Assembly: GCA_017477245.1 (NCBI GenBank) | Contig: JAFUWY010000031.1 | Location: 1 to 41,378, forward strand | Source: Bacteroidales bacterium | GTDB taxonomy: Bacteria > Bacteroidota > Bacteroidia > Bacteroidales > UBA932 | DNA: 41,378 nucleotides | Direction of reading: 5' to 3' | Shown: piece by piece, positions 9,146-34,636 of the stretch | How positions within the stretch are numbered: position 1 is the first letter of the stretch | How the letters are laid out: every line of letters starts with the position of its first letter | Notes under the pieces: model-generated | What the model saw: the letters and a program-made list of their open reading frames with translations, nothing else | Told to the model about the DNA's origin: nothing | Database searches by the model: none | Position numbers and translations under genes: made by a program

Positions 9146-10051
9146 TCAGTCGATCAGCGCATTCTTCTCGACGGTCCAGCCTTCGCGCTGCGAGAGGCCG
9201 CAGGGGTTGCCCTGGAAGAGTTTGGCGGCCTGCTTGTCGCCCTTGAGCTGCCACTGCAGCCAGGCCAGGGCTGGCACCGTGAACTCGCCGCCGTGCGGCT
9301 TGGCGTAGGTGCCGCCATGGCCGACCGGATAGTTGGCCGCGAAGGCGGGGACCTTCGTCAGCCGGTGGAAGTCGTCCATGCCGTTCTGGTAGGCGATGTC
9401 CTGCTCGCCGCCGAGGATGTAGATCACGGGGACGGTGATCTTCTGGAGTTTCTCCTTCTCGGGCATCGGCATGCCGGGCACGGCGCCGGCCGGGTTGATG
9501 AACAGGCCGCTGTTGCAGATCATCAGGGTCTTGAAGCGCGGGTCCGCCGCGTTGTCCAGCGTCTGCAGCCCGCCGCAGGACATACCGGCGGCGGCGATGG
9601 CATCCACGTCGATGCGGCCGTAATACGGGCTGTCCTTGTCGGCATTCTGCGCGATGGCCCAGTCGACGGCCTCAAGCTGCTGCTTCGAGGTGGACTGCGG
9701 GCCCTGGTAGCGGTCGTCGGTCATCGGGATGTAGCCCGTGGCGATCACCAGGAACCCGTGCGAGGCGATCTCGTTGAGGAACTTGTAGTGCTCCCACGGG
9801 GAGTTGATGCAGGCGCCGTTGCCCCACACGAGGACGGGAAGTTTGTTCCCGCGCCCGAACGGAGCGAGGTCCTGAGGCGCGAAGATGGTGTGGGCCTCGA
9901 GCGAGGGGTCCTCCAGCATCAGGACCTTGTAGGGGCCCGTGCCGCCGTCTTCGACGATCCGGTTCAGTCCGGCCGGCGGAGCGACCGGTTTGGGCGTGCA
10001 TGCGCCGAGAATCAGGGCGCAGGCCGCAAGGAGGGAAAGGGTCCGTCTCAT
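9146..10051 (-). CDS. Alpha/beta-hydrolase lipoprotein, probable esterase
   Basis: A secreted lipid-anchored hydrolase of 301 residues. The N-terminus has a lipoprotein signal with lipobox LGAC (Cys18). The nucleophile elbow is GMSCG (Ser158), and the likely remaining triad residues are Asp218 (GGEQD) and His245 (GHGG). The overall pattern 'LPVLVWGNG' ... 'GFLVIATGY' resembles dienelactone-hydrolase/cutinase-like serine esterases. Its start overlaps the stop of the carboxylesterase gene by 4 nt (ATGA), and both lie behind a GH2 gene, so the three form one unit. In that context it may remove ester groups from plant glycans; the actual substrate is unknown. Confidence 0.8.
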   Translation of the reverse strand: MRRTLSLLAACALILGACTPKPVAPPAGLNRIVEDGGTGPYKVLMLEDPSLEAHTIFAPQDLAPFGRGNKLPVLVWGNGACINSPWEHYKFLNEIASHGFLVIATGYIPMTDDRYQGPQSTSKQQLEAVDWAIAQNADKDSPYYGRIDVDAIAAAGMSCGGLQTLDNAADPRFKTLMICNSGLFINPAGAVPGMPMPEKEKLQKITVPVIYILGGEQDIAYQNGMDDFHRLTKVPAFAANYPVGHGGTYAKPHGGEFTVPALAWLQWQLKGDKQAAKLFQGNPCGLSQREGWTVEKNALID

Positions 10052-11610
10052 CGTCCGAAGTTGATTAAGGCATCATCCAGGTGGGAAACCCCGCGGCAGA
10101 CATCGTCCAGGACCATCGTGAAGCCGTTCTCCTCGCTGTAAGGCTCCCAGGTCGGGATGCCCTTGACGTTGGGATTGCCGGTCTTGATGAAGGAAAGCCA
10201 GATGTCGCTGACGGTCTGCTGGAACTTGTAGGCGCGGTCGCTGCCGCCGGTCATCTCGCGCATGTTCTGCACGTTGTTGAACATGAAAGGAAGCTCCATG
10301 CCATGGCTGGCGCCGAGGACGTTCCCGTCCGGCATCCAGGTGAAGAGGTAGAGGTAGGCCGGCGCGCCGCCCTGGCGGGCCTTGGCCGCCGCCTGGTTGA
10401 TGGCGCCGGAGCGGAACCGCAGGTCCATGTAGACGGCGTCCTTGAGCGGAGCGTCCGGATAGGCGGCCCGGAAGAGTTCGATGAACGCATCGGTGCGCTC
10501 GCCGTAGCGGCGCGACAGCTGCTCGCGCACGGCCGCCTCGGAGCCGTCGATCCCGACGTTGAAGGTGAATTCGTTGAAGTTGGTACCGACCAGCAACGGG
10601 ACGTCGCGGCCCAGCTCGGGCGCTTCGGTGTCGCCGGGTTTCAGGGTGATCACGGTGCCGTCACCGACCGGGCCGGCGCCGGCACGCGCCTGGCGCGAGG
10701 CCGCCAGCAGCTCCTCGTAGCTGAACCTGGAGAGATCGACGTCCGGGCCGGGCTTGACGCCCAGGGCCTTGACGAAGGCGAGGCCCTGCTCCCGGCTCAC
10801 CGCGGGATCCGCCACGCTGAGGAAGGAGCCGCTCTGGACCACGGCCTTCTTGAAGAGGCCCTTGGCCGAAGGCATGGCCAGCAGCGCGGACACCTTGCCG
10901 CCACCGCCGGACTGGCCGCCGATGGTCACGTCGTCGGGGTTGCCCCCGAAACGGGCGATGTTGTCACGCACCCACTCGAGCGCCTTGACGATGTCCTGCT
11001 GGCCCAGGTTGACGGACTGGGCGTATTTGCCGCCCAGGCCCGTGAGGTCGAGGTAGCCCAGGACGTTGAGCCGGTGGTTGATGTTCACGACCACGATGTC
11101 GCCCTTCTGCGCGAGGGCCCGGCCCTCATAGCAGGGCAGGTCGTGGCCCGAGCCGCTGGAGTAGCCGCCGCCGTGGATCCACAGGAAGACGGGACGCTTC
11201 CTGCCGTCGGTGATGGAGGGCGTCCAGACATTCAGCACCTGGCAGGCCTCGTCCATCGGCTCCAGGAAGAACTGGTTGCCGAAGCCGTAGTCGGTCTGGG
11301 TGTTGCCGTCGTTGTAGTTGAGGGTCTCGGTCTGCGGGGTCTGCGGCCCGTAGAGCTTGCATTGCCGCACGCCCTCCCAGCGGTCGGGCGCCTGCGGAGG
11401 CATGAAACGCTCCGCCTTGGCGTAGCGGATGCCCTTGAAGGTGTAGATGCTGCCGTCGAGGTAGCCCTCGATGGTGCCGTAAGTCGTTTCCACGCGGGTG
11501 TTCTCCCCCGCCGTGATGGCGCCGTCCGGAAGGTACTTCTCCGGCGCCTGGGGGCCGCAGGCGGCGCAGAGCAGGGCGGCCGCAGCAGTGAGGATCAGGG
11601 ATTTTCTCAT
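10048..11610 (-). CDS. Type-B carboxylesterase, lipoprotein
   Basis: A serine esterase of the carboxylesterase/lipase family, about 520 residues. From the start at 11610 the signal peptide reads MRKSLILTAA and ends at lipobox CAAC (Cys18). The triad is Ser234 (GGQSGGGG), Glu347 (GTNFNEFTF) and His436 (GASHGMEL), and the oxyanion loop is WIHGGGY at about 144-150. I chose 11610 because it lies 1 nt after the GH2 stop and starts directly at the basic part of the signal. An in-frame ATG at 11622 would add four residues and overlap the GH2 gene. It is co-transcribed with the GH2 upstream and the hydrolase downstream. Deacetylation or removal of phenolic esters from glycans is plausible but not proven. 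Confidence 0.88.
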   Translation of the reverse strand: MRKSLILTAAAALLCAACGPQAPEKYLPDGAITAGENTRVETTYGTIEGYLDGSIYTFKGIRYAKAERFMPPQAPDRWEGVRQCKLYGPQTPQTETLNYNDGNTQTDYGFGNQFFLEPMDEACQVLNVWTPSITDGRKRPVFLWIHGGGYSSGSGHDLPCYEGRALAQKGDIVVVNINHRLNVLGYLDLTGLGGKYAQSVNLGQQDIVKALEWVRDNIARFGGNPDDVTIGGQSGGGGKVSALLAMPSAKGLFKKAVVQSGSFLSVADPAVSREQGLAFVKALGVKPGPDVDLSRFSYEELLAASRQARAGAGPVGDGTVITLKPGDTEAPELGRDVPLLVGTNFNEFTFNVGIDGSEAAVREQLSRRYGERTDAFIELFRAAYPDAPLKDAVYMDLRFRSGAINQAAAKARQGGAPAYLYLFTWMPDGNVLGASHGMELPFMFNNVQNMREMTGGSDRAYKFQQTVSDIWLSFIKTGNPNVKGIPTWEPYSEENGFTMVLDDVCRGVSHLDDALINFGR

Positions 11611-11611
11611 A

Positions 11612-14125
11612 CTATTCGGCATTGAAGGTAATCGTGGAAGGGGTCAGGCCGTCGGAAGTGACGGTCACGGTGACGGTGCCCTTGCGGTCCGCGGCCACGA
11701 TGCCCAGGCACAGGCCGGAATAGGCCTTGCGCTCGGCGGCCTTGACGGAGCCGAGGTCACGCATGTCGCCGTTCTCGACACCGATCAGCCGTCCGCCCCG
11801 GACGTCGAATCTCACCACGTTGTCCGTGATCGGGCAGATGTTCCCGTCGGCATCGAGCACCTCGACGGTGACGTGCGCGACGTCGCCCGGCTCAGCCTTG
11901 AAGGACGGGCGGTCCACGCTGGCGCGCAGCTGTGCGGGCGCGCCGGCCGTGCGGATGACCTCTTCATAGGTCTGTCCGTTCTTTTGGGCCACGACCTTGA
12001 TCTCGCCGGGCTGGTACTCCACGTCCCAGGTCAGGTGGAGGTCCGCCGTGGTGGCGTAGCGCTTGCCGGGAGCGTACTGCGCCCAGCTCACGTCCACGCC
12101 GCGGCGCGGGAACTCCGTCTCCTTCTTGCCGTAGGACTTGCCGTTCACGAAGAGCTCGACCTCCTCGCAGTTGGTGTAGCAGGCCACCTGGATGATGCGG
12201 CCTTCGTTGCCGGCCCAGTTCCAGTGCGGCAGCAGGTGCAGCACCGGCTCATCGGTCCAGATGCTCTTGAAGAACCAGTAGCCGTCCTTCTTGAAGCCGC
12301 AGTTGTCGAGGTAGCCCGAGGTGCTGCCGCGGGACGGCCAGCCGGACTCGCCGTAGTAGTCGATGCCGGTCCACATGAAGTCGCCGATCACGTAGTCGTA
12401 GTTCATCGCGAAGCGCCAGCGCTGCTCCACGTCGATCAGCCCGCTGCTGATGATGCCGCGGTTGGCGCGGCGCATGTTGCGCATCATCTGCTGCATCTGG
12501 GCGTTGTTCGTCTGCTGCGGGGAGAAGCCGCCCTGTCCGGCGCCGAGCGGGCGCTGGGGCTGGGCGTCCGGCAGCGTGTACTGCCGGCGGGGACCGCCGA
12601 GGCCGGAGGACTCGGTGGCCACGACGCGGCGGTTCGGGAACTCCGCCTTGTCGATGGCGTAGTTCAGCTCGCGGCGCGTGCGCCAGCGGTCGGGATAATT
12701 GTAGCCCACGATATCGTTCTCGAAGGCCGCGAGGAACTCCGGCGAGGTCGGGCTGTTGGAAGCGATCTCGTCGTTGCCGGAGGTCACCAGACGGGTCGGG
12801 TCCAGGCGGTGGCAGTAGTCGATCATCTCGCGGGCGAGGCCCGGGCCGACCTCGCTGCGCTGGTCGCGGATCTCGTTGCCGATGCTCCACATCACCACGG
12901 AGGGGTGGTTGCGGTCGCGGGCCACCATCGCATAGAGGTCACGGATGTGCCACTGGTCGAAGACCAGGTGGTAGTCGAACTTGTTCTTGCCGGCGATCCA
13001 CTGGTCGAAGGCTTCGTCCATCACCAGCATGCCGTGCTTGTCGCAGAGGTCGAGGAACTCCGGTGCGGGCGGGTTGTGCGCCGTGCGGATGGCGTTGCAG
13101 CCGCCCTCCTTGAGGATCTCGATGCGGCGCTCCCACACGCGCTCGGGCACGGCCGCGCCCACGGCGCCGGCATCGTGGTGGAGGTTCACGCCCTTCATCT
13201 TGACCTGCTTGCCGTTGAGAAGGAACCCCCTGTCAACGTCATATTCGATGGTGCGCACGCCGAGGGTCCCCTCGACGCAGTCGACCTCCCGGCCGGAGGC
13301 GAGCAGCTGCGAGCGCAGGGTGTAGAGATAAGGATTCTCCGTGTCCCAGAGCTGCGCGCCGGGGACCTCGAGCTTCTGCTCGACGGTCTGCGCGCCGCCG
13401 GAGACCATGTCGATCTCCTTCTCCGCCGTGGCCACCACGGCTCCGGCCGCGTCCAGCACGGTCTGGCGGACCGTCAGGCTGCGGGCGCGCGCCTCGCCGT
13501 TGGTGACGTCGGACCGGACCAGCACCTTGGCGGTACCGTCCTTCACCTCCGTCGTATAATGGAAGATGCCCCACTTGTCGAAGTGCGTCTTCGCGGTGGC
13601 GACCAGCCGCACGTGGCGGTAGATGCCCGAGCCGCTGTACCAGCGGGAATTGGGCTGCTGGGAGTTGTCCACCCGCACGGCGATCACGTTGCCGCGCGCC
13701 TTGAGCACCGGCGTGAGGTCGTAGGAGAAGCTGGAGTAGCCGTAGGGCCAGGTCCCCAGGCACACGCCGTTGAGCCAGACCGTGCTGTTCATGTAGACGC
13801 CGTCGAACTCGATGGAATACAGCTTGTCCTTGCTGTAGCCGGGCACGTCGAAGGATTTGCGGTACCAGCCCGTGCCCATCGGGAAGAAGCCGATGCTGCC
13901 GCCGCCGGGGTTGTCCTGCAGGTTCTCCCCCTCCAGGCTCCAGTCATGGGGCAGGTCGAGTTTGCGCCAGGTCCGGTCGCCGAATCCGGGCGCCTGGGCG
14001 CCGGACGGATCGCCCTGGATGAATCGCCAGTCGCGGTCGAAGTTCGTCACGACGCGCGCGGGCTGCGCGGAGGCCAGCAAACCTGCTGCCGTCAGCGCAC
14101 ACAAAAGGGTAAGCAGTCGTTTCAT
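11612..14125 (-). CDS. GH2 beta-galactosidase-type glycoside hydrolase with a Q/N/M-rich insertion
   Basis: A secreted (periplasmic) retaining glycosidase of 837 residues, expected to release beta-linked galactose from short galactan chains. A signal peptide (about 20 residues, cleaved near ASA-Q) is followed by the jelly-roll domain (PHDWSLEG, GTGWYRK, WLNG), an Ig-like domain, the TIM barrel and C-terminal Ig-like domains. The acid/base is Glu418 (WSIGNEI) and the nucleophile Glu505 (VVATESSG). It is a close paralogue of the GH2 at 31142-33538, with long identical stretches around IEFDGVYMNSTVW and GDFMWTGIDYYGE. Unlike that copy it carries a low-complexity segment at residues about 511-557, rich in Q, N, M and R, right after the nucleophile. 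It is the first gene of a three-gene minus-strand unit. Confidence 0.92.
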   Translation of the reverse strand: MKRLLTLLCALTAAGLLASAQPARVVTNFDRDWRFIQGDPSGAQAPGFGDRTWRKLDLPHDWSLEGENLQDNPGGGSIGFFPMGTGWYRKSFDVPGYSKDKLYSIEFDGVYMNSTVWLNGVCLGTWPYGYSSFSYDLTPVLKARGNVIAVRVDNSQQPNSRWYSGSGIYRHVRLVATAKTHFDKWGIFHYTTEVKDGTAKVLVRSDVTNGEARARSLTVRQTVLDAAGAVVATAEKEIDMVSGGAQTVEQKLEVPGAQLWDTENPYLYTLRSQLLASGREVDCVEGTLGVRTIEYDVDRGFLLNGKQVKMKGVNLHHDAGAVGAAVPERVWERRIEILKEGGCNAIRTAHNPPAPEFLDLCDKHGMLVMDEAFDQWIAGKNKFDYHLVFDQWHIRDLYAMVARDRNHPSVVMWSIGNEIRDQRSEVGPGLAREMIDYCHRLDPTRLVTSGNDEIASNSPTSPEFLAAFENDIVGYNYPDRWRTRRELNYAIDKAEFPNRRVVATESSGLGGPRRQYTLPDAQPQRPLGAGQGGFSPQQTNNAQMQQMMRNMRRANRGIISSGLIDVEQRWRFAMNYDYVIGDFMWTGIDYYGESGWPSRGSTSGYLDNCGFKKDGYWFFKSIWTDEPVLHLLPHWNWAGNEGRIIQVACYTNCEEVELFVNGKSYGKKETEFPRRGVDVSWAQYAPGKRYATTADLHLTWDVEYQPGEIKVVAQKNGQTYEEVIRTAGAPAQLRASVDRPSFKAEPGDVAHVTVEVLDADGNICPITDNVVRFDVRGGRLIGVENGDMRDLGSVKAAERKAYSGLCLGIVAADRKGTVTVTVTSDGLTPSTITFNAE

Positions 14126-14275
14126 GGGATTATGCGGTTTTCAGTAAAGATAAGCATTCTTCCGGAAATCCCGGTCCGCCGGTGAATATGCCCATATACT
14201 AACAAAACCCAATTTTGTCCAATAACCATCCACAAATGCTGCGTGGCGGACCGGTTCCCAGGTTATCACTCGTTG

Positions 14276-14283
14276 CAAAAATA
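14276..14283 (-). promoter_or_regulatory. -7 promoter box for the GH2-carboxylesterase-hydrolase unit
   Basis: On the minus strand the bases read TATTTTTG, an exact fit to TAnnTTTG, about 150 nt upstream of the GH2 start. A TGTCA pentamer of the repeat at 14305-14330 lies 21 nt upstream, about where a -33 element would be. Confidence 0.55.
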
Positions 14284-14304
14284 CGGCTTTCTCCCTGCAG
14301 GGAC

Positions 14305-14330
14305 TGACACTGAGCGGACAGATGATGACA
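14305..14330 (-). promoter_or_regulatory. Candidate regulator binding site, triple NGACA repeat (copy 1)
   Basis: TGACA (14305-14309), GGACA (14316-14320) and TGACA (14326-14330) follow each other with 11- and 10-nt periodicity, about one helical turn. The same arrangement occurs at 30985-31010, with 21 of 26 bases identical. In both places it lies exactly 21 nt upstream of a minus-strand TTTG box. It sits between a PUL enzyme gene and the HTCS gene, so it is a candidate HTCS operator. Confidence 0.5.
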
Positions 14331-14394
14331 TAATTTGATTCCGGGCTTCTAAAGACCGGGAATTATGCGTATCTTCCTGTCAGATTCAAGGAAA

Positions 14395-19282
<4,888 letters not shown>

Positions 19283-19285
19283 AAA

Positions 19286-19320
19286 GAAATCGGGGTGCCG
19301 GACGGCACCCCGATTCTTTT
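19286..19320. terminator. Bidirectional terminator between convergent esterase and GH2 genes
   Basis: A 12-bp stem (AATCGGGGTGCC, 19288-19299, with GGCACCCCGATT, 19304-19315) and 4-nt loop has A-rich and T-rich flanks on either side, so it works in both directions. Its T tract includes the first bases of the minus-strand GH2 stop codon (19319-19321). Confidence 0.88.
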
Positions 19321-21742
19321 ACTCGGCCGCGATCGTCACGCTGGCGCTCCGGAGGTCCGGAGCGGACGCGGTGAACGTCACCGTGCCGGGCGCCTCGGCC
19401 GCCTGCACGATGGCGGTCAGCTTGCCGTTGAAGAAGTGCATCTCCGGCAGGTGGAAGAGGTCCAGGCAGGTCGGGTCGCCGTTGGCGGCGGCGCGGTAGG
19501 CACCGCCGGCGCCCTGCGTCGCGAAGGACGCGAGCCGGCCGTCGGACGGGCAGAGGTTGCCGTCCTTGTCCACGACGCTCACCTCGATGTAGGCGAGGTC
19601 CTTGCCGTCGGCCTTGAGCGTGCTGCGGTCGACCTTGAGCTCGATGTGGTCGGGCTCGCCCGCCGTGCGGACGCTGCGCTCCGCCACGGCGTTGCCCGCG
19701 GCGTCATACGCGACGACCTTGACTTCGCCCGGTTCGTAGACCGTGTCCATCCACATCAGGCGCCAGCGGCCCTGCTCGTCGGACGGATCCTTGGCCTTGC
19801 GGCCCTGGCTCTTGCCGTTGATGAAGAGCTCGGCCTCGGGATAGTTGGTGTAGACGAACACCGGGGTCACCTCTCCCTCGCGGCCGGGCCAGGTCCAGTG
19901 CGGCAGGATGTGGAGGGTCTCCGCATCCGGACGCCAGACGCTGCGGTACAGCCAATAGCGGTCCTTGGGGATCGAGGCGAGGTCGATGATGCCGAAGTTG
20001 GAGCTGTGGTTGGGCATCAGGTTGTAGGGCGTCGGCTCGCCGAGGTAGTCGAAGCCGGTCCAGACGAACTGGCCGATCTCCCACTCCTTGTCCGCCGCCA
20101 TGGCGAAGTCGATGTCCGGGACGTTGGACCAGCCGCAATACTCCAGGTCATAGGAGGAGCACTGCAGGTCCTCGTGCCGGACGCGGGCCGTCTTCTCGAC
20201 GGGGAAATAATACACGCCGCGCGAGGAGATCGTGGAGGCCGTCTCGCTGCCGAGCACGATCTTGTGCGGCAGGGTCTCGTAGGCCTGCTCGTAGAGGTGT
20301 ACGCGGTAGTTGAAGCCCGGCACGTCCAGCAGGCCGGCCAGGCCGTTCTTCAGCACGCAGAGGACCTGGTCCATGCCGCAGGTCGTGAAGCGGGTCGGGT
20401 CCTCGCGGTGGCAGATGTCCACCAGGAACTTGGCCGTCTCGTAGCCGCTCTCGCTGCACTGGCTCGGCACTTCGTTGCCGATGCTCCAGAACACCACGGC
20501 CGGGTCGTTGCGGAACTGGTGCAGCATGTTGACCATGTCCTTCTCGGCCCACTCGTCGAAGAAGAGGTGGTAGCCGTTGCGGCATTTGCGGATGTCCCAC
20601 TCGTCGAAGGGCTCGAGCATCATCATGAAGCCCATCTCGTCGCACAGGCGCACCAGCTCGGGGGCCGGCATGTTGTGCGAGGTGCGGATGGCGTCGCAGC
20701 CCATCTCCTTGAGCAGGGTCAGCTGGCGGCGCAGGGCGGCCTCGTTGACCGCGCTGCCCAGCGGGCCCAGGTCGTGGTGGTTGCACACGCCCTGGAACTT
20801 GCGCATCTTGCCGTTGAGGAAGAAGCCCTTGTCGGCGACCAGCTCGATGGAGCGCACGCCGAAGGTTGTCGTATATTCATCCACGGCCTTCCCGCCCGCA
20901 TAGACGGTCGTCACGGCCTTGTAGAGCGACGGGGACTCCGGCGACCAGAGCTTCGGCCGGCGGATCCGGAGCTTCTGCTCCCGGCCGGCGTCGAACGGCT
21001 TCGAGCGCCTGCGGACCGCTACCTTGCGGCCGTCCGGGTCATAGATCACGGTGCGGATCCTGGAGGCCTCGCCCGCCAGGCTGACCTTCAGGTCCACCTT
21101 GGCGGAGCGCTCGGAGATCTCCGAGCAGATCAGCTGCGTGCCCCAGACCGGGACGTGCACCTCGTCGGTCACGATCAGGTGGACGTTGCGGTACAGGCCC
21201 GCGCCGGGATACCAGCGGGACGACTCCGGGAGGTTCTCCAGGCGGACGGCCAGCACGTTGTCCTTGCCGTCCGGGTTGAGGAATTCCGTGACGTCGAAAT
21301 GGAAGGAATTGTAGCCGTAGGGCCATTCGCCGACATACTTGCCGTTGACGTAGACCTTGGCCTGGCTCATCGCCCCGTCGAAGAGGAGCTCGGCGCACCT
21401 GCCTTCACCGAAGTCCGGGACGTCGAACCTGAGCCGGTACCAGCCCACGCCCACGTAGGGCAGGCCGCCGGTGCGCCCGGTCTTGAGCGAGGCGCGCTGC
21501 TCGAAGTTCTGCGTGATCGCCACGACCTGGGCGTCGTTGTTGGCGTCGAAAGGGCCGTAGATGGCCCAGTCGTGCGGCACGCGGACCTGCTCCCAGGCGC
21601 TGTCGTCCACGACGACGGGAGCGTAGTCGCCGTCTCCCTTGGTAAACATCCAGCCCTTCTCCAGAAGGACTTCCTGCCGCGGGCCGGCCAGGGCCGCCGC
21701 ACACATCAGGGCCGCCAGCGCGGCCGTCAAGATTCGTTTCAT
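19319..21742 (-). CDS. GH2 beta-galactosidase-type glycoside hydrolase
   Basis: A secreted retaining exo-glycosidase of 807 residues. After a signal peptide (cleaved near ALA-G) come the jelly-roll domain (PHDWAIYGPF, GVGWYRLRF), an Ig-like domain, the TIM barrel and C-terminal Ig-like domains (a DUF4982-like region and an invasin-like beta domain). The acid/base is Glu424 (WSIGNEVP) and the nucleophile Glu500 (VLGSETAST). It differs clearly from the three other GH2 proteins here (PYGYNSFHFDVTEFLNPDGK versus the YSSFSYDLTP type) and so probably has its own linkage or chain-length preference. It follows the SusE-like gene but is separated from it by a hairpin and has its own promoter. In the B. 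thetaiotaomicron galactan PUL a GH2 stands at the corresponding place. Confidence 0.92.
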   Translation of the reverse strand: MKRILTAALAALMCAAALAGPRQEVLLEKGWMFTKGDGDYAPVVVDDSAWEQVRVPHDWAIYGPFDANNDAQVVAITQNFEQRASLKTGRTGGLPYVGVGWYRLRFDVPDFGEGRCAELLFDGAMSQAKVYVNGKYVGEWPYGYNSFHFDVTEFLNPDGKDNVLAVRLENLPESSRWYPGAGLYRNVHLIVTDEVHVPVWGTQLICSEISERSAKVDLKVSLAGEASRIRTVIYDPDGRKVAVRRRSKPFDAGREQKLRIRRPKLWSPESPSLYKAVTTVYAGGKAVDEYTTTFGVRSIELVADKGFFLNGKMRKFQGVCNHHDLGPLGSAVNEAALRRQLTLLKEMGCDAIRTSHNMPAPELVRLCDEMGFMMMLEPFDEWDIRKCRNGYHLFFDEWAEKDMVNMLHQFRNDPAVVFWSIGNEVPSQCSESGYETAKFLVDICHREDPTRFTTCGMDQVLCVLKNGLAGLLDVPGFNYRVHLYEQAYETLPHKIVLGSETASTISSRGVYYFPVEKTARVRHEDLQCSSYDLEYCGWSNVPDIDFAMAADKEWEIGQFVWTGFDYLGEPTPYNLMPNHSSNFGIIDLASIPKDRYWLYRSVWRPDAETLHILPHWTWPGREGEVTPVFVYTNYPEAELFINGKSQGRKAKDPSDEQGRWRLMWMDTVYEPGEVKVVAYDAAGNAVAERSVRTAGEPDHIELKVDRSTLKADGKDLAYIEVSVVDKDGNLCPSDGRLASFATQGAGGAYRAAANGDPTCLDLFHLPEMHFFNGKLTAIVQAAEAPGTVTFTASAPDLRSASVTIAAE

Positions 21743-21760
21743 GGGTAATCGGTTTTGTTA

Positions 21761-21768
21761 CAAAGATA
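21761..21768 (-). promoter_or_regulatory. -7 promoter box for the GH2 gene at 19319-21742
   Basis: The minus strand reads TATCTTTG, an exact match to TAnnTTTG, with TTTC 19 nt upstream as a possible -33 element. The start codon is 18 nt downstream. Together with the hairpin at 21775-21799 this points to separate initiation for this GH2. Confidence 0.6.
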
Positions 21769-21774
21769 ATCAAA

Positions 21775-21799
21775 GCCCCGGTTTCCTGAAAGCCGGGGC
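21775..21799 (-). terminator. Hairpin terminator or attenuator after the CE1-GH53-susCDE operon
   Basis: GCCCCGG (21775-21781) pairs with CCGGGGC (21793-21799), and the inner TTTC/GAAA extends the stem. On the minus strand it is followed by TTTGATTATCTTTG, only moderately T-rich, so it may be leaky. It lies 23 nt past the SusE-like stop. Confidence 0.6.
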
Positions 21800-21822
21800 C
21801 ATGAAAAATAATCAACCAACCA

Positions 21823-22941
21823 TTATTTAACCGCACTGATTGCCAGGTGCCAGGTGCAGTCAGCGGATTCGTAGTAGAGTTTGAAGCGGTAGCGGCCGGC
21901 GGACGCGATCTTGAAGTTGGCGTCGCCGCCCAGGATCTTCTTGGAGATGTCGTTGTGATACATCTTGATGTCGGATCCGTCGCGGACGGTCAGGTCGGCG
22001 GCCCGCTTGGGCCCGAAGGTGAAGCTCCAGCTGTCGTTGATGGACATGCGGAAGGAGCCCGAGGTGTAGTCGGCTTCGCCGATCCAGGCTTTCTCCGCAG
22101 CATTGTAGACCAGTTCCGGGTTGTTGCGGAACGACCAGCCGCCCAGGCCGCACAGGCGCACGGGCCCGTCCAGCTTGGTGATGGAATAGGTACCGGCATT
22201 GAGGTCGGCGCGCACGTAGGCCAGCTCCGCAGGGGCCTCGATGGCCGCGCCGCCTACCTTGAGGCTGCCGCCGTCGTCCCCCCAGGCGTCGCCATCGTTC
22301 TTGCCAGAATAGGTGTATTCCAGGAACTTGACCGTATTGGCGCCGGACGACTTCATGTTCACCAGGCCCTGGTAGGCCTTCCCGCCGCTCTCGGTCTCTT
22401 CGATGCCGTCGCGGTCCGGGTGGTTGCCGTTGAAGGTGCCGGAGATGTAGAGCATGTTGATGCCCGTACTGATACGGGCGATGTCGAAGGTCACCTGGAC
22501 CGGCTCGGACTTGACGGTGTAGTAGCCGTCGCCCATCGAGGCCGTGACATAGCACGGCACCGTGTGGGACGCTCCCTTGGAGAGGCCGAGGTTGCTCTCG
22601 CCGACCAGCTTGGCATAGAGGGTCTTGTAGTCGATGACATACCGGGTCTGGGTCACGCCGGACACCAGGCACATGTCGGGATGCGAAGGGCTCGACAGGT
22701 AGATCGAGTAGCTGAGTTCCGTAGGCATGCCGAGGTCCGCCTTCTCCCAGGAGAAGGTCACCTCGCCGTTGTCGTCATAATTCTTCTGGGACACCTGGAC
22801 GGTGCCCATCGTGTTGACCTTCGGCGCCGAGAACTGGCTCTCCGGGGAGGTCTTGACGATCTCGAGGCCGTTGGGGTCGCAAGCCGCAAACAGGGCTGCG
22901 GCCGCCAGCAACAGGCAATATTGGATTCGTTTCATACGCAT
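21823..22941 (-). CDS. SusE/SusF-like surface glycan-binding lipoprotein
   Basis: An outer-membrane, surface-exposed lipoprotein of 372 residues, expected to hold galactan near the SusCD complex. The signal peptide ends at lipobox FAAC (Cys21). The N-terminal SusE-type Ig domain (about residues 38-155; VTFSWEKADLGMP, LSYSIYLSS) precedes two beta-rich modules with repeated aromatic segments (INMLYISGTFNGN, LCGLGGWSFRNNPEL, NFKIASAGRYRFKLYYESADCTWHL). The last resembles the carbohydrate-binding ends of SusE/F proteins. It begins 6 nt after the susD stop; a second ATG at 22935 is an equal candidate for the start. Its place behind susD matches the SGBP gene in known galactan PULs. Sequence conservation in this class is low, so the ligand is inferred from context. 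Confidence 0.85.
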   Translation of the reverse strand: MRMKRIQYCLLLAAAALFAACDPNGLEIVKTSPESQFSAPKVNTMGTVQVSQKNYDDNGEVTFSWEKADLGMPTELSYSIYLSSPSHPDMCLVSGVTQTRYVIDYKTLYAKLVGESNLGLSKGASHTVPCYVTASMGDGYYTVKSEPVQVTFDIARISTGINMLYISGTFNGNHPDRDGIEETESGGKAYQGLVNMKSSGANTVKFLEYTYSGKNDGDAWGDDGGSLKVGGAAIEAPAELAYVRADLNAGTYSITKLDGPVRLCGLGGWSFRNNPELVYNAAEKAWIGEADYTSGSFRMSINDSWSFTFGPKRAADLTVRDGSDIKMYHNDISKKILGGDANFKIASAGRYRFKLYYESADCTWHLAISAVK

Positions 22942-22947
22942 GACTTG

Positions 22948-24654
22948 TTAATTGACATAACCCGGTTTGTGCGAAAGATTGCTGTTCGCGGTCAGCTCGG
23001 ACTGCGGGAAGTCGAACACCAGCAGGTGCTGCGAGAAACCCTGGCCCTGGTAGCTGCCGCCCTTCCACCTCCAGAGGAAGTCTGCGGAGTGGAACTTGTC
23101 CCAGCGGATGAGGTCGGTGCGGCGGAGCGCCTCCCAGGAGAGCTCCACGGCACGCTCGTTCTGGACATCCTCCAGGGTGTAGCTCGGGAGCGGATCCAGG
23201 TGGGCACGCTCACGGACCTTGTTGAGGTACGGCAGGCCCTTGGCGGCCTGGCCGTCCATGACGCAGGCCTCCGCATAGTTGAGGTAGACCTCGGCCAGGC
23301 GGATCATCGGATAGTCGATGCCGGCCTTGGCGCTGGCGGTACCGTAGCTGCGGGCGGAGCTGGCGAACTCCTCGCGGGTCATGTCGTGCGGGATGTTGTT
23401 GTACTTGTAGTAGCTCCAGCCCTGGGTAAACTCGGCCAGGTTGGTCATCTGCTCCTTGTGTCCCTTGATGTAGAACATCGAAGCCCGGTCGTCCGTGTAG
23501 TTGTACACGCCCGTGTATTTGCCTTCATCGTCGTAGCCGTCCTCCGGGACGGTGACGCCGAAGTAGTCGAACACGTACTCGGAAGGCATGCGGATACCGG
23601 CCCAGCCGTCCGCGACGCCCAGCGAATACTGCTGGTTGCCGTTGGCATCGCGGTCGTCGCCCACGGTGAAGCAGGACTGCGCCAGGAAGATCGTGCCGCC
23701 CCAGCCGTTCATGCTGATCTCATCGTAGTCGATGGCGAAGATGAGCTCCTTGCGGGCCTCCGGATTCTCGCCGTTGTCGCCGCGGAAGAGGTCGGAATAC
23801 TTGGGGCAGAGGTCGTAATTCATCTTGAAGACTTCCTCGCAGGCAGCCATGCACTCCTTCCACTTCGCATCGCCCTTCTTGGTGACGTTGCCCTTGGCAT
23901 CCACCGTATTGTTGTAGACCTGGGCGTTGAGGTACACGCGGGAGAGCAGGGACATCACGGCGCCCTTGTCGGCGCGCGGATAGTTGGAGCCGGCGGCCGG
24001 CATGTCCTGGCTGGCGCCCAGTTCGGTCAGTTCCTCGACGATGAAGTCGTACACCTCTCCGCGGGGCTTCACCTCAGGCGAGACGGCGCCGAAATCGGAC
24101 TCCTCGGTCACGAACGGCACGTCGCCGAAGGTATCGATGGCCATCCAGTACATGACCGTACGCAGGAAGCGGGCCTCGGCACGCAGGGAGTGCACCTTCG
24201 AGACGACATCATCCGCACAGCCACGCGCGGAGAGCTTGTCGTCCGTGGTCTGGCGCAGGAATTCGTTGGCGTAAGTGATGCCGTGCAGGGTCCGGCAGTA
24301 GAGGGCGTAGGACGCGGCGTTGTCCGCCGTGGACCAGGTGTTCTTGTTGATGTCCTGGGTCCAGGAGTCCTTCTCCCAGTCGTTCTTGCAGGCGTCCGTG
24401 GAGCATTCCTGGACGCACCAGAAGGCGCGCACCAGCTCGGAGGCGCCGCCGTCCTCGACCTGGAGGTCGGAGGTATTGTTGAAGCAGCGGTAGATCTTGG
24501 CCAGGCCGGAGACATAGTTCGCATAGTCGCTTCCGTAGGCGTTCTCGGAGGTGAAGTCATCCTCGTTGAAAGGATAGGCGTCCAAGTCCTTGACGCAGGA
24601 TGCGGCAAGCAGGCCCGTGGCAATCACCAAAGCAATGTATATCAGTTTTTTCAT
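22948..24654 (-). CDS. SusD/RagB-family surface glycan-binding lipoprotein (galactan PUL)
   Basis: The lid and binding subunit of the SusCD importer, 568 residues. The lipobox is LAASC (Cys20). The SusD N-terminal helices (YANYVSGLAKIYRCFNN) and the RagB C-terminal region are clear, the latter with YPMIRLAEVYLNYAEAC, GLPYLNKVRERAHL and VELSWEALRRTDLIRWDKF. It starts 13 nt downstream of its susC and is followed after 6 nt by the SusE-like gene. Partner and substrate follow from the operon, which also encodes a GH53 endo-galactanase. Confidence 0.95.
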   Translation of the reverse strand: MKKLIYIALVIATGLLAASCVKDLDAYPFNEDDFTSENAYGSDYANYVSGLAKIYRCFNNTSDLQVEDGGASELVRAFWCVQECSTDACKNDWEKDSWTQDINKNTWSTADNAASYALYCRTLHGITYANEFLRQTTDDKLSARGCADDVVSKVHSLRAEARFLRTVMYWMAIDTFGDVPFVTEESDFGAVSPEVKPRGEVYDFIVEELTELGASQDMPAAGSNYPRADKGAVMSLLSRVYLNAQVYNNTVDAKGNVTKKGDAKWKECMAACEEVFKMNYDLCPKYSDLFRGDNGENPEARKELIFAIDYDEISMNGWGGTIFLAQSCFTVGDDRDANGNQQYSLGVADGWAGIRMPSEYVFDYFGVTVPEDGYDDEGKYTGVYNYTDDRASMFYIKGHKEQMTNLAEFTQGWSYYKYNNIPHDMTREEFASSARSYGTASAKAGIDYPMIRLAEVYLNYAEACVMDGQAAKGLPYLNKVRERAHLDPLPSYTLEDVQNERAVELSWEALRRTDLIRWDKFHSADFLWRWKGGSYQGQGFSQHLLVFDFPQSELTANSNLSHKPGYVN

Positions 24655-24667
24655 ATTCTGGGCATCA

Positions 24668-27600
24668 TTAGAAGTTAAGATTCACGCGCAGGGAGTAGAC
24701 CCGGGACCTCGGGGTGCCGCTGCCGTCGATGCCGCCCTCGCCGATCTCCGGATCCACGCCCGGGTACTTGGTGATGACGAGCAGGTTGTTGGCAGACAGG
24801 GCGAGGCGCAGGCGGGCGCTTCCGAAGATCTTCGGGAAGGTGTAGCCGATGTTGACGTCGTCGATCTTGAAGAAGGACGCGTCGTGCAGGAAGTAGTCGG
24901 AGTAGCTCTGGGCGATCATGTTGGTATTGGTCCAGCCGGTCCGGTTCACGATCTTGCGGTAATTGTACAGGTGGCTGTAGTTGATCCAGTCGTTGGCCAC
25001 GGTGGAGTTGTTCTGGTGGTAGTTCCAGAAGACCCAGTTGCCGACGGAGCCGTGGGCGTTGAAGCCGAAGTCCCAGTTCTTGTAGTTGTACTTCAGGCGC
25101 AGGCCGTAGAAGAAGGACGGGAGCGGGCTCTTGCCGGTCAGGTAGCGGTCGCTGTCCGTGATCATGCCGTCGCCGTCACGGTCCACGAAGGCGTTCTGGA
25201 TCGGCTTGCCGTCCGAATCGTAGGCCTGCTGGTACAGGAAGAACGTGCGCGGGGCATAGCCCACGCGGTGCTGCTGCGAGTAGCCGCCGGTGCCGACGCC
25301 GATGCCGCCCGTCTGGATGTAGTAGTCCTTGTTGACGCTCTCGTCACCGACCGTCAGCTTGGTGAACTTCGTATCCTGGAAGGTCAGGTTGGTGCCGATC
25401 ATCAGGCTGGAGATCCGGTTGCGGACCGGGTTGAAGTTCAGGCCGAGTTCGATACCCTTGTTGGACATGCTGCCGATATTGGTGAGCAGTTCGTTGGAGA
25501 AGTTGGCGCCCATCGGGATCAGCACGGTGTTCAGCAGGTCCTTGGTGTCCTTCCGGTACAGGTCGAGGTTACCGGAAACGAGGTCCTTGGCGAAGCTGAA
25601 GTCCACGCCGACGTTGGTCGTGATGGTCTCCTCCCACTTGATGTTGGGATCGTAGGCGCTCGGGGTCAGGTTGAACACGCGGCCGTCGGAGCCCATGTTG
25701 TACTTCGAGGTCGTGCCGGTGGACATTTTGTAGTTGGCCAGATAGGAATAGTTGGCGATGCCGCTCTCCTGGCCGGTCACGCCCCAGCCGAAGCGGAGCT
25801 TGAGCTCGTCCACGCCCCGGACATTCTTGAAGAAGGGCTCCTCCTTGATGTTCCAGGCCAGCGCGGCGGAGGGGAACAGGCCCCAGCGGTGGTCCGGCGC
25901 GAAGCGCGAGGACCCGTCGTTACGCAGGGTGAACGTGGCGAGGTAGCGACCCTTGTAGGAGTAGTTCACGCGGCCGTAGAAGGACACCAGGAAGTGCTCC
26001 TCGCCGTGGCGGGTGATGCTGCCGTAGAGGTCGTCCTTCTTGACGTTCACGCCCTTGGCCTCGTTGACGTAGTCGTCGTTGTAGTGCTGCTCGCTGTGGT
26101 TGTAGTTGTAGAAATGCTCATAGGAGTAACCCGCCATCACGTCGATGCGGTGTCCGCTGAAATCGTGCTTGTAGTTGGCGAAGAACTCGAGCATGTCGTT
26201 CATGTTGAAGCCGTCGCTGAGCGTGTAGAGACCCACCTTCGGAGCTACGCTGTCGTTGATCAGGCCCCAGTAGCCCGGCATGCTGCGCGTCCAGTTGTCG
26301 TTGGAGCGGCGGTCGGTGCTGGTGCGCAGGTTGAACTCCAGGTCTTCCAGGCCGTGGACCTTGTAGTTGATCACGCTGCTGAGCGTCCAGCCCAGGTTGT
26401 GCGGGTTCCGCAGGGAGGTCACGTACTGCATCGGGTTGGTGGAAGCGCCGGCGCCCGGGACGAGGTCGTCCCCGCGGCCGGTGGAGTCGATGTAGTAGCC
26501 GTAGTTGGTGTCATAGTCGATGGACCCGTCGGCGTTCAGGAAGTACACCGGCAGGGTCGGGTTGAAACTCGCGGCGGAGCTGTAGCTGGCGCTGCCCGGG
26601 TCGGAGAAGGAAGTGTTGACCTTCGCCATCAGGGAGACGCGCAGGTGGTCCTGCAGGAAGGTCGGCGTCAGGGAAACGCTGACCGTGGGGCGGTGGCTCC
26701 AGGAGCCGAGGGTCTGGCCCAGGCTCTGCATGTAGCCGAGCGAGACACGGTACGGGAGGTGTCCCTTCAGGGTCGTACCGCTGATGCTGAGGTTGTGCGT
26801 GGAGCGCTGTCCCATGCGGGTCACGAGGCTGATCCAGTCCGTGTCGGCGTCGCCCATCAGGGCTTCGGCGGCGGCCAGGGAGCCGGGGCGGTCTGCGTAA
26901 AGCTGCTTCATGAAGCTGCGGTACTCGCTGGCGGACATGACGTCTTCGCGGCCGATATAATGGCTCAGGCTCAGGGATCCGCTGTAGGAGACGCGCGGCT
27001 TGCGGCTGGCGCTCGCCTTCTTGGTCGTCACGAGGATGACGCCGGAGGCGGCCCGGGAGCCGTAGATGGCGGCGGAGGAAGCGTCCTTGAGGACGGAGAA
27101 GGAATCGATGTCGTCCGGGTTGATGGACGAGAGGCCGTTCGCATTGAGCGGCACGCCGTCCACCACGATGAGCGGGCTGTTGGAGGCGTTCAGCGAGGAG
27201 ATACCACGCACGCGCAGCGTCCCGTCAGGCAGGACGAGCAGGCCGGAGACCTTGCCCTGGAGCAGCTCGTAGCTGTTGGACACGGCGCCGCGGTTGATCT
27301 CTTCCGCCTTGACGGCGGCCACGGATCCGGTCATGTCGCTCTTGCGGACCGTACCGTAACCGATGACGACCACGTCTTCCAGCTGGATCTGGTCGTCCGA
27401 CAGGACCACGCGTCCGTTGGCGAATTCAGCCGAGGAGGCCGGGATGATCCGCGTCTGGTATCCCAGGCAGACCACCGTCACCGGGGCATCCGCCCCCGAG
27501 ACGACGAGCGAGAAGTTGCCGTCCACGTCTGTCGTGACGCCACGGCTCTGCTGTCCCTCTTCATACAAGGCAGCGCCGATCACGGGCACGCCGCCCGCAT

Positions 27601-27700
27601 CCACGACGACGCCCTTGAGCGTCTTCGTCTGCGCTGACAGCACCTGGCTGCCGACAAGCAGCAGGGCCATGGACAGGATGAGAAGTGAAAGTTTCTTCAT
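24668..27700 (-). CDS. SusC/RagA-family TonB-dependent outer-membrane receptor (galactan PUL)
   Basis: A complete SusC of 1,010 residues. The signal peptide ends near LSA-Q (23-24). A carboxypeptidase-regulatory-like domain lies at about 27-102 (LKGVVVDAGGVPVIGAALYE), and a TonB box-like VVVIGYGT at about 110-117. The plug follows with VRGISSLNASNSPLIVVDGV, ending at VLKDASSAAIYGSRAASG. The 22-strand barrel ends in NLNF. The plug segment between QGKVSGLLV and the RGISS motif is short compared with many relatives. It lies 27 nt after the GH53 gene and 13 nt before susD, in a five-gene operon. It should import galacto-oligosaccharides released at the cell surface. Confidence 0.96.
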   Translation of the reverse strand: MKKLSLLILSMALLLVGSQVLSAQTKTLKGVVVDAGGVPVIGAALYEEGQQSRGVTTDVDGNFSLVVSGADAPVTVVCLGYQTRIIPASSAEFANGRVVLSDDQIQLEDVVVIGYGTVRKSDMTGSVAAVKAEEINRGAVSNSYELLQGKVSGLLVLPDGTLRVRGISSLNASNSPLIVVDGVPLNANGLSSINPDDIDSFSVLKDASSAAIYGSRAASGVILVTTKKASASRKPRVSYSGSLSLSHYIGREDVMSASEYRSFMKQLYADRPGSLAAAEALMGDADTDWISLVTRMGQRSTHNLSISGTTLKGHLPYRVSLGYMQSLGQTLGSWSHRPTVSVSLTPTFLQDHLRVSLMAKVNTSFSDPGSASYSSAASFNPTLPVYFLNADGSIDYDTNYGYYIDSTGRGDDLVPGAGASTNPMQYVTSLRNPHNLGWTLSSVINYKVHGLEDLEFNLRTSTDRRSNDNWTRSMPGYWGLINDSVAPKVGLYTLSDGFNMNDMLEFFANYKHDFSGHRIDVMAGYSYEHFYNYNHSEQHYNDDYVNEAKGVNVKKDDLYGSITRHGEEHFLVSFYGRVNYSYKGRYLATFTLRNDGSSRFAPDHRWGLFPSAALAWNIKEEPFFKNVRGVDELKLRFGWGVTGQESGIANYSYLANYKMSTGTTSKYNMGSDGRVFNLTPSAYDPNIKWEETITTNVGVDFSFAKDLVSGNLDLYRKDTKDLLNTVLIPMGANFSNELLTNIGSMSNKGIELGLNFNPVRNRISSLMIGTNLTFQDTKFTKLTVGDESVNKDYYIQTGGIGVGTGGYSQQHRVGYAPRTFFLYQQAYDSDGKPIQNAFVDRDGDGMITDSDRYLTGKSPLPSFFYGLRLKYNYKNWDFGFNAHGSVGNWVFWNYHQNNSTVANDWINYSHLYNYRKIVNRTGWTNTNMIAQSYSDYFLHDASFFKIDDVNIGYTFPKIFGSARLRLALSANNLLVITKYPGVDPEIGEGGIDGSGTPRSRVYSLRVNLNF

Positions 27701-27727
27701 ATTGCGATCAATTATGGATTTTGGTTA

Positions 27728-29698: not shown

Positions 29699-29728
29699 CT
29701 TATAACGGATTATGGTTGGTCGTGGTGG

Positions 29729-30952
<1,224 letters not shown>

Positions 30953-30955
30953 CTA

Positions 30956-30963
30956 CAAAGGTC
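30956..30963 (-). promoter_or_regulatory. Possible -7 box of the CE1-GH53-susCDE operon
   Basis: The minus strand reads GACCTTTG, which keeps the TTTG half of TAnnTTTG but not the TA. It is 22 nt upstream of the start codon and exactly 21 nt from the triple repeat at 30985-31010, the same geometry as at 14276-14330. A better consensus match (TATTTTTG, minus strand, 31011-31018) is an alternative, but it would put the repeat downstream of the -7 box. Confidence 0.4.
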
Positions 30964-30984
30964 TCGATTATCCGCCAAATGCCT

Positions 30985-31010
30985 TGACACAAAACGGACA
31001 GTTGCTGACA
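30985..31010 (-). promoter_or_regulatory. Candidate regulator binding site, triple NGACA repeat (copy 2)
   Basis: TGACA (30985-30989), GGACA (30996-31000) and TGACA (31006-31010) have the same 11- and 10-nt spacing as copy 1 at 14305-14330. The region lies between the divergent CE1-GH53-susCDE and GH2-GH43-GH2 operons, where PUL activation by the HTCS would be expected. Confidence 0.5.
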
Positions 31011-31063
31011 CAAAAATACGGGGGCGCGAAGTGGGCGGGAGAAATGCCGGTCTGCAAAGAAAT

Positions 31064-31109
31064 AGTCCGATCTGTGTCATTCCTTTTCTGTCGCGAATGA
31101 TTAATTTTG
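31064..31109 (+). promoter_or_regulatory. Promoter of the GH2-GH43-GH2 operon with a partial copy of the repeat
   Basis: TAATTTTG at 31102-31109 fits TAnnTTTG and lies 32 nt before the GH2 start. Upstream are AGTCC (31064-31068) and TGTCA (31075-31079) with a 6-nt spacer, then 22 nt to the -7 box. Read on this strand, this is two of the three elements of the repeat (TGTCC-N6-TGTCA) with one mismatch and one extra base of spacing. Confidence 0.5.
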
Positions 31110-33538: not shown

Positions 33539-33594
33539 TTTTTACTAACTTCGTGGAAGAATAAAACCACATGTTTTCCGTCAATCCTTCGAAT

Positions 33595-34635: not shown

Positions 34636-34636
34636 T

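What the first reader, a model, noticed from the sequence alone, without database searches (positions are those of the whole stretch)
14276..14330. Shared triple-repeat operator candidate (copy 1) between GH2 and the HTCS gene
TGACA-N6-GGACA-N5-TGACA is repeated at 30985-31010 with identical spacing and 21 of 26 identical bases. In both cases it is exactly 21 nt upstream of a minus-strand TTTG promoter box. Three pentamers at one-turn spacing suggest a protein bound on one face of the helix. HTCS proteins act through AraC-type domains that recognise direct repeats, so this may be the regulator's DNA site. I found it only by comparing the two intergenic regions.
Basis: partly seen in the sequence, partly recalled or inferred. 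Interest (0 to 1): 0.72.

Follow-up and report, generated by a model that had tools for sequence, protein, structure and literature searches.

The report
Conserved operator of a galactan-utilisation regulator
A short triple-repeat DNA sequence in front of the galactan-digestion genes of what appears to be an uncultured gut or rumen Bacteroidales bacterium is very probably the docking site of the cluster's own sugar-sensing regulator: a solid example of a known kind of switch, not a new kind.

Summary
TGTCA-N5-TGTCC-N6-TGTCA (minus strand) occurs exactly twice in the window, at 14305-14330 and 30985-31010, and a scan of the 2.38 Mb assembly found no other exact copy. In both, the last TGTCA lies 21 nt before a TAnnTTTG-type -7 box. 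In 400 congeneric genomes the long pattern (three boxes, N21, TAnnTTTG; at most 2 of 21 mismatches) occurs in 9 of 9 whose HTCS is at least 61% identical to the window's, 0 of 6 with a 37-43% HTCS, and 1 of the other 385; the reversed control gave no hit. The site is kept in 7 of 7 orthologous intergenic regions. The first and third boxes start 21 bp apart, the average published for Bacteroides HTCS repeats (PMC3878776, passages). Best reading: an HTCS operator whose promoter-proximal box sits where the -33 element would be, in a galactan-type PUL. A new member of a known kind. Binding is untested. A fourth candidate, at an unlinked GH53 gene, is ambiguous: it persists in two incomplete genomes where no close HTCS was found and is absent in one that has it.

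The parts
14305..14330 (-). Operator 1 (finding copy 1): TGTCATCATCTGTCCGCTCAGTGTCA, in the GH2/HTCS divergent intergenic region
   Evidence: kept in 7 of 7 aligned orthologous intergenic regions, with two box departures in G153 and one in G155
14276..14283 (-). -7 box TATTTTTG, 21 nt downstream of operator 1, for the GH2 operon
   Evidence: TA(A/T)TTTTG at 21 nt in 7 of 7
30985..31010 (-). Operator 2 (finding copy 2): TGTCAGCAACTGTCCGTTTTGTGTCA, upstream of esterase-GH53-SusC-SusD-SusE-GH2
   Evidence: conserved in G151, G152, G155, G156, diverged form in G153
30956..30963 (-). Weak -7 box GACCTTTG, 21 nt downstream of operator 2
   Evidence: G151, G152, G155 carry GAACTTTG and G156 GACCTTTG at the same distance
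31054..31079 (+).
   Evidence: kept in G155 and G156 (N22) and G152 (N21); lost in G151
31102..31109 (+). -7 box TAATTTTG, 22 nt downstream of operator 3
14365..18117 (+). HTCS gene: Reg_prop sensor, HisKA, HATPase_c, response regulator, HTH_18; inferred cognate regulator (ATG at 14395 may be the real start)
   Evidence: Pfam; conserved TATCTTC block at 14370 lies downstream of the listed ATG
9146..14125 (-). Inferred target operon 1: GH2 (11612-14125), carboxylesterase family (10048-11622), PETase-like hydrolase (9146-10051)
   Evidence: operon inferred from order and spacing
19319..30934 (-). Inferred target operon 2: esterase (29729-30934), GH53 with two matched GH53 stretches (27728-29698), SusC (24668-27700), SusD (22948-24654), SusE (21823-22941), GH2 (19319-21742)
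   Evidence: operon inferred from order and spacing
31142..37045 (+). Inferred target operon 3: GH2 (31142-33538), GH43 (33571-34635), GH2 (34637-37045)
   Evidence: operon inferred from order and spacing

Best explanation
The repeat is the DNA operator of the galactan-type PUL's own hybrid two-component regulator (HTCS, 14365-18117). Shown: three TGTC(A/C) boxes at 10- and 11-bp spacing, hence on one helical face; a fixed 21 nt (22 in some promoters) from the last box to a TAnnTTTG-type -7 box; three promoter regions of one PUL, the third with a weaker two-box form; conservation; near-exclusive occurrence in genomes with a close HTCS. Inferred: on sensing a periplasmic galactan-type oligosaccharide, the phosphorylated HTCS binds as a head-to-tail dimer through its AraC domains, which hold two helix-turn-helix motifs each. 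One subunit reads TGTCA-N5-TGTCC and the second the promoter-proximal TGTCA. That box sits near -34, where the TTTG element would be, so the protein makes up for a poor or missing -33 box and recruits sigma-ABfr polymerase (class II-type activation) to the GH2 operon, the esterase-GH53-SusCDE-GH2 operon and the divergent GH2-GH43-GH2 operon.
For: Only two exact copies in the assembly, both at promoters of this PUL. In 400 congeners, 9 of 9 genomes with an HTCS of at least 61% identity carry the long pattern (at most 2 of 21 mismatches), against 1 of 391 others; reversed control 0 (Fisher 1.5e-17, not corrected for shared ancestry, and the 61% line was drawn after seeing the list). The boxes and -7 box are kept in 7 of 7 intergenic regions, although between window and G151 the surroundings at 14250-15749 are only 58-74% identical, with flanking bins of 82-97% (first edge bin 64%) and 89-100%. 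The site tracks the HTCS DNA-binding domain: 8 of 8 compared domains at 80-99% identity have a three-box site just upstream (the 80% one with 4 of 15 box mismatches); the 71% one has a perfect two-box site with N21 just after its gene; the five at 43-66% have none upstream, best 7-9 of 21 mismatches. The HTCS ends in HTH_18. Published HTCS motifs are direct repeats averaging 21 bp apart (PMC3878776, passages), and the receiver/DNA-binding part of another HTCS, BT0366, shifted fragments from its PUL (PMC5061871, passages).
Against: No binding or expression data. Site and HTCS are inherited in the same locus, so co-occurrence cannot separate this HTCS from another factor acting on the same PUL. 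The fourth candidate, upstream of an unlinked GH53 gene, keeps TGTCATAATTGGTC in G008 and G119, where no HTCS match reached E 1e-100 and the nearest DNA-binding domain is 41% identical; only its third box is decayed there. G065 has the HTCS and the GH53 gene but no site there. G008 and G119 are 81 and 83% complete. Operator 3 lacks a recognisable first box and is lost in G151; the two-box scans that show it are weakly specific (27 hits against 9 reversed-control hits with N21, 16 against 8 with N22). At 3 mismatches the long pattern gave 11 hits in 10 genomes without a close HTCS, against 5 control hits in 151. In G065 a paralogous HTCS has its DNA-binding domain in another reading frame, yet a 1-mismatch site stands in front of it.
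Confidence: 0.78

Rival explanations
1. The boxes are bound by a different AraC-type or HTCS regulator (or a broader regulator of galactan and uronate genes) with a similar TGTC half-site, and the PUL's own HTCS acts elsewhere.
For: TGTCATAATTGGTC persists upstream of an unlinked GH53 in G008 and G119, where no close HTCS was found. A 3-mismatch site in G153 lies between an ORF that by eye resembles an AraC-type regulator and one resembling a sugar porter, neither scanned.
Against: In 400 congeners the strict pattern is essentially confined to genomes with the close HTCS, and it fades with DNA-binding-domain identity. In G008 and G119 the third box of the unlinked site is decayed.
Confidence: 0.14
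2. The HTCS binds the repeat but as a repressor or autoregulator of its own gene rather than as an activator of the divergent enzyme operons.
For: Operator 1 ends 34 bp before the listed HTCS start. The receiver has STIP where most HTCSs have S/CHIP (the position was matched by eye), and deviation from that motif has been linked to altered regulation and, in BT2391, to repression (PMC11253607, passages).
Against: The fixed 21-22 nt spacing is to -7 boxes of the enzyme operons, also at operators 2 and 3 where no HTCS gene adjoins, and a position over and just upstream of -33 is typical of activation (recalled).
Confidence: 0.06
3. Chance or relic repeat with no function.
For: Simple pentamers; the two copies could be an old duplication.
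Against: 3e-5 exact copies expected in the window; kept in 7 of 7 orthologous intergenic regions while the surroundings diverge; reversed control 0 hits in 400 genomes.
Confidence: 0.02

Closest known systems
Predicted HTCS operators of Bacteroides thetaiotaomicron (Ravcheev et al. 2013, PMC3878776; passages read)
   Same: Direct repeat in PUL promoters, about 21 bp between the repeated sites, linked to an HTCS with an AraC-type domain, conserved in orthologous PULs
   Different: A conserved middle box (TGTCC) and little trace of a second half of the promoter-proximal repeat, so it reads as three boxes; a different genus. The published logos are in figures and supplements that I could not see.
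HTCS_Pga / BT4673 and the pectic galactan PUL BT4667-BT4673 (PMC3878776, PMC5238430; passages read)
   Same: PUL with GH53, GH2, SusCDE and an HTCS
   Different: The window adds esterases, a GH43 and more GH2s. Orthology of the HTCS to BT4673 and identity of the motif were not tested.
Class II AraC-family activators such as XylS, RhaS and MarA (recalled, no call)
   Same: Half-sites about one or two helical turns apart, the proximal one overlapping the -35 element
   Different: Here the activator domain is fused to a membrane sensor kinase and the promoters are of the sigma-ABfr type

Membership tests
HTCS operator (Ravcheev-type) | Direct repeat with about 21 bp between the repeated sites | tested here: met
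   First and third boxes start 21 bp apart at both exact copies
HTCS operator (Ravcheev-type) | Lies in promoters of PUL operons beside an HTCS with an AraC-type domain | tested here: met
HTCS operator (Ravcheev-type) | Conserved upstream of orthologous genes in related genomes | tested here: met
[quoted passage not shown]
   The middle box is conserved (G, T, C at positions 12-14 in 26, 26 and 25 of 26 chosen sites). Where a second half would follow the third box (positions 32-36) only a T at 32 stands out (15 of 21 sites, 0.87 bits); the other four are at most 0.28 bits
HTCS operator (Ravcheev-type) | Bound by the cognate HTCS response-regulator domain | not testable with these tools
   Needs EMSA or footprinting
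HTCS_Pga (BT4673) regulon | Regulator orthologous to BT4673 | not tested
   BT4673 was not fetched; similarity rests on PUL gene content
sigma-ABfr promoter | -7 box TAnnTTTG | tested here: met
   Exact at operators 1 and 3 (TATTTTTG, TAATTTTG); one mismatch at operator 2 (GACCTTTG); consensus from PMC7366714 (passages)
sigma-ABfr promoter | -33 box TTTG at about 20 nt before the -7 box | tested here: inconclusive
   No TTTG in the spacers of operators 1 and 3; operator 2 has TTTG 26 and 12 nt before its -7 box. The TGTCA box sits at about the -33 position, and PMC7366714 reports a variable spacer
Class II AraC-type activation | Proximal half-site overlaps -33/-35 and expression needs the activator | tested here: inconclusive
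   Position met (about -34); activation not testable here

The most novel reading that the evidence does not exclude
In this lineage the DNA side of the circuit (AraC domain, three-box operator, fixed 21-22 nt to the -7 box, operator box in place of the -33 element) is held constant while the periplasmic sensor of the same HTCS turns over. PULs would be retuned to new oligosaccharides by exchanging the sensor in front of a locked output, and the operator-for--33 geometry would be a general design rule for HTCS promoters.
Probability: 0.28. Interest if true: 0.55.

Novelty: new member of a known kind. Interest (0 to 1): 0.32.

Why it matters
HTCS proteins are a major class of regulators of polysaccharide utilisation in Bacteroides (PMC11253607, abstract), and the sites published in PMC3878776 are predictions. 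This case gives a testable 26-bp operator with an exact promoter geometry, three promoters in one PUL, and clear mutations to try. The consensus with the N21/N22 rule could help to define regulons in uncultured genomes. It does not change the picture of how such systems work.

Tried and rejected
A fourth box outside either end: none seen by eye upstream in the alignments; downstream, only a T at position 32 (15 of 21) stands out. Extending the regulon in G000: the two-box N21 scan returned only operators 1 and 2; the N22 scan returned operator 3, an unlinked GH53 promoter (C29) and one hit not followed up (C3:28170), with one reversed-control hit. The GH53 site is also in G153, G155 and G156, but because TGTCATAATTGGTC persists in G119 and G008 without a close HTCS, and G036 and G065 have the gene without the site, I do not count it as a shown member. 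At 3 mismatches the long pattern gives 20 hits in 13 of 151 genomes, 11 of them in 10 genomes without a close HTCS, against 5 reversed-control hits; the small excess is unexplained and these 11 were not examined one by one. The strict hit in G436 was taken as chance and not examined. Two-box hits with 2 mismatches in G159 and G160 were taken as background. Of the 80 loci, 16 were scanned and one more (L033). The published HTCS_Pga logo could not be compared (no figures held, no supplement look-ups allowed). The passages that I read do not give this motif, and TGTCA does not occur in the main text of PMC3878776 or of the two HTCS-related papers listed; this is not proof that it is unpublished.

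Full report
The observation. On the minus strand the window carries TGTCATCATCTGTCCGCTCAGTGTCA (14330-14305) and TGTCAGCAACTGTCCGTTTTGTGTCA (31010-30985); both fit TGTCA-N5-TGTCC-N6-TGTCA with no mismatch. With three mismatches allowed there are still only these two in the window (shuffles: mean 0.62, and 12 of 100 reach two). Exact copies expected from base composition: 3e-5. A looser pattern scanned over the 2.38 Mb assembly (96% complete) gave 11 hits, of which only these two had no mismatch. The last box is followed at exactly 21 nt by TATTTTTG at copy 1 and GACCTTTG at copy 2, against the Bacteroidetes -7 consensus TAnnTTTG (PMC7366714, passages read).

Setting. The window holds a galactan-type PUL: an HTCS with Reg_prop, HisKA, HATPase_c, receiver and HTH_18 domains, GH53, SusC/D/E, GH2s, a GH43 and esterases. 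Copy 1 precedes the minus-strand GH2-carboxylesterase-hydrolase genes and lies between them and the HTCS gene. Copy 2 precedes the minus-strand esterase-GH53-SusCDE-GH2 genes. B. thetaiotaomicron has a comparable pectic galactan PUL with GH53, GH2, SusCDE and an HTCS (PMC5238430, passages including a figure legend).

Conservation. Relatives of the HTCS were found by protein search. In seven orthologous HTCS/GH2 intergenic regions (window, G151-G156) the boxes align without a gap and are followed at 21 nt by TA(A/T)TTTTG; the only box departures are two single bases in G153 and one in G155. Other well-kept stretches are a GAAGATA block near the HTCS start and a TCTTTA stretch near the GH2 start. 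Copy 2 is conserved in G151, G152, G155 and G156, with single-base box departures, and as TGTCAGAATATGTCCGGATTGTGAAA-N21-TACTTTTG in G153. In G154 the GH53 gene has two tandem sites.

Specificity. The long pattern (three boxes, N21, TAnnTTTG; at most 2 of 21 mismatches) was found in 10 of 400 congeneric genomes: the 9 whose HTCS is 61-100% identical to the window's, and G436. It was absent from the 6 with an HTCS of 37-43%; the reversed control gave no hit. The 61% line was drawn after seeing the list. Fisher's test for 9 of 9 against 1 of 391 gives 1.5e-17, but site and regulator sit in one locus and the genomes share ancestry, so this shows linkage and specificity, not causation. At 3 mismatches the picture is noisier: 11 of 20 hits lie in 10 genomes without a close HTCS, against 5 control hits in 151 genomes.

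Relation to the DNA-binding domain. Fourteen HTCSs were compared with the window's. Eight with domains of 80-99% identity have a three-box site just upstream: seven of them with 0-2 of 15 box mismatches, and the 80% one, L028, with 4. The 71% one (G157, L029) has no site upstream but a perfect two-box site with N21 and TACTTTTG just after its HTCS gene. The five at 43-66% have nothing convincing upstream (best 7-9 of 21 mismatches within 700 bp with N21).

A third promoter. The scan with TGTCC-N6-TGTCA-N22-TAnnTTTG found AGTCCGATCTGTGTCA-N22-TAATTTTG at 31064-31109 on the + strand, before the divergent GH2-GH43-GH2 genes. The equivalent is in G155 (0 mismatches) and G156 (1) with N22, and in G152 with N21 (1 mismatch), where the divergent gene nearest the site is a different one. 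It is lost in G151. The two-box scans are weakly specific (27 hits against 9 reversed-control hits, and 16 against 8), so the case for operator 3 rests on conserved place and spacing, not on the count.

An ambiguous fourth site. The same scan found TGTCATAATTGGTCTTGTAAGTGTCA-N22-TATCTTTG upstream of an unlinked GH53 gene (contig C29; PF07745, E 5.5e-64), conserved in G153, G155 and G156. A blind DNA pattern landing on a galactanase-family gene is suggestive. But of six genomes in a sample of 151 with this gene, the window's included, G119 and G008 lack a close HTCS and still keep TGTCATAATTGGTC, with the third box decayed to TATCA and TATGG, while G036 (no close HTCS) and G065 (with the HTCS) have no such site. 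The nearest DNA-binding domain in G119 and G008 is 41% identical. They are 83% and 81% complete. Another regulator may use this promoter.

How it probably works. Box centres lie 27.5, 38.5 and 48.5 bp upstream of the -7 box centre, near -34, -45 and -55. The last box is about where the -33 TTTG element would be; no TTTG lies in the spacers of operators 1 and 3, and operator 2 has TTTG only 26 and 12 nt before its -7 box. Over 21 chosen N21 sites the box positions carry 0.87-2 bits; the spacer is mostly under 0.6, the exceptions being T at 32 (15 of 21), A at 42 (20 of 21) and A/T at 43; TTT of the -7 box is invariant (the sites were chosen partly by box and -7 letters, so their conservation is inflated). 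AraC-type domains hold two helix-turn-helix motifs about one turn apart; a head-to-tail dimer would read boxes 1-2 and box 3, with its second half-site weak or occupied by polymerase. EMSA of HTCS receiver/DNA-binding fragments on PUL promoters is published for BT4124 and BT4663 (PMC11253607, passages) and BT0366 (PMC5061871, passages). Dimer binding, activation and ligand are inferred here.

Known or new. Published HTCS motifs are direct repeats averaging 21 bp apart, interpreted as dimers two helix turns apart (PMC3878776, passages). The first-to-third distance here is 21 bp. I therefore call it a new member of a known kind. The conserved middle box and the exact promoter geometry are refinements.

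Verdict. Real, specific, conserved, and most likely the HTCS operator. Scientifically useful but expected, hence moderate to low interest.

Noticed in passing
window 14250-16250 versus L023 (G151): The periplasmic sensor half of the HTCS is a divergence hot spot. Protein identity to G151 is 44-55% over residues 1-400 but 96-100% from residue 601 on; the next 12 kb of the PUL (16250-28114) are 94-100% identical in DNA per 250-bp bin, while most of the GH2 gene on the other side is 82-91%. This looks like a recombination mosaic or sensor replacement. Three other relatives have 39-65% over residues 1-400 and 76-94% from residue 801 on.
   Followed up: partly
window 14365-18117 (receiver, [12 protein letters not shown]): The receiver has STIP where the S/C-H-I-P motif tied to inhibition of HTCS DNA binding (PMC11253607, passages) is expected; position matched by eye. 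None of the 15 aligned sequences (window and 14 relatives) has the His, so this HTCS clade may control its DNA-binding domain differently.
   Followed up: no
window 14145-14152 (minus strand TATCTTTA): A second -7-like box 19 nt before the GH2 start codon: TATCTTTA in 6 of 7 aligned sequences (G154 differs), although about 100 nt between it and operator 1 are missing in G153 and G154. Possible second promoter.
   Followed up: no
window 14370-14382: TATCTTC (GAAGATA on the other strand invariant in 7 of 7) lies downstream of the listed HTCS ATG at 14365, suggesting an HTCS promoter here and translation from ATG 14395. TGTCA follows it in 5 of 7.
   Followed up: no
window 30964-30984 (spacer of operator 2): The 21-nt spacer AGGCATTTGGCGGATAATCGA is kept at 21, 19 and 17 of 21 bases in G152, G155 and G156 but 11 of 21 in G151, more conservation than a bare spacer needs.
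   Followed up: no
L201 (G065:C38, about 31680-35516): A second, 49% identical HTCS has its DNA-binding domain in another reading frame (real or assembly error), with a 1-mismatch operator between it and a divergent set of genes that by eye begin with an esterase, a SusC-like and a SusD-like protein.
   Followed up: partly
L142 (G153:C68:9777-9831): A 3-mismatch site lies between an ORF resembling an AraC-type regulator and one resembling a sugar MFS porter; names by eye from the first residues, not scanned.
   Followed up: no
G069:C28:37300-37354 and G154:C35:27587-27641: An identical 55-base 3-mismatch match to the long pattern occurs in two genomes away from this PUL; possibly a site of a related regulator.
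   Followed up: no
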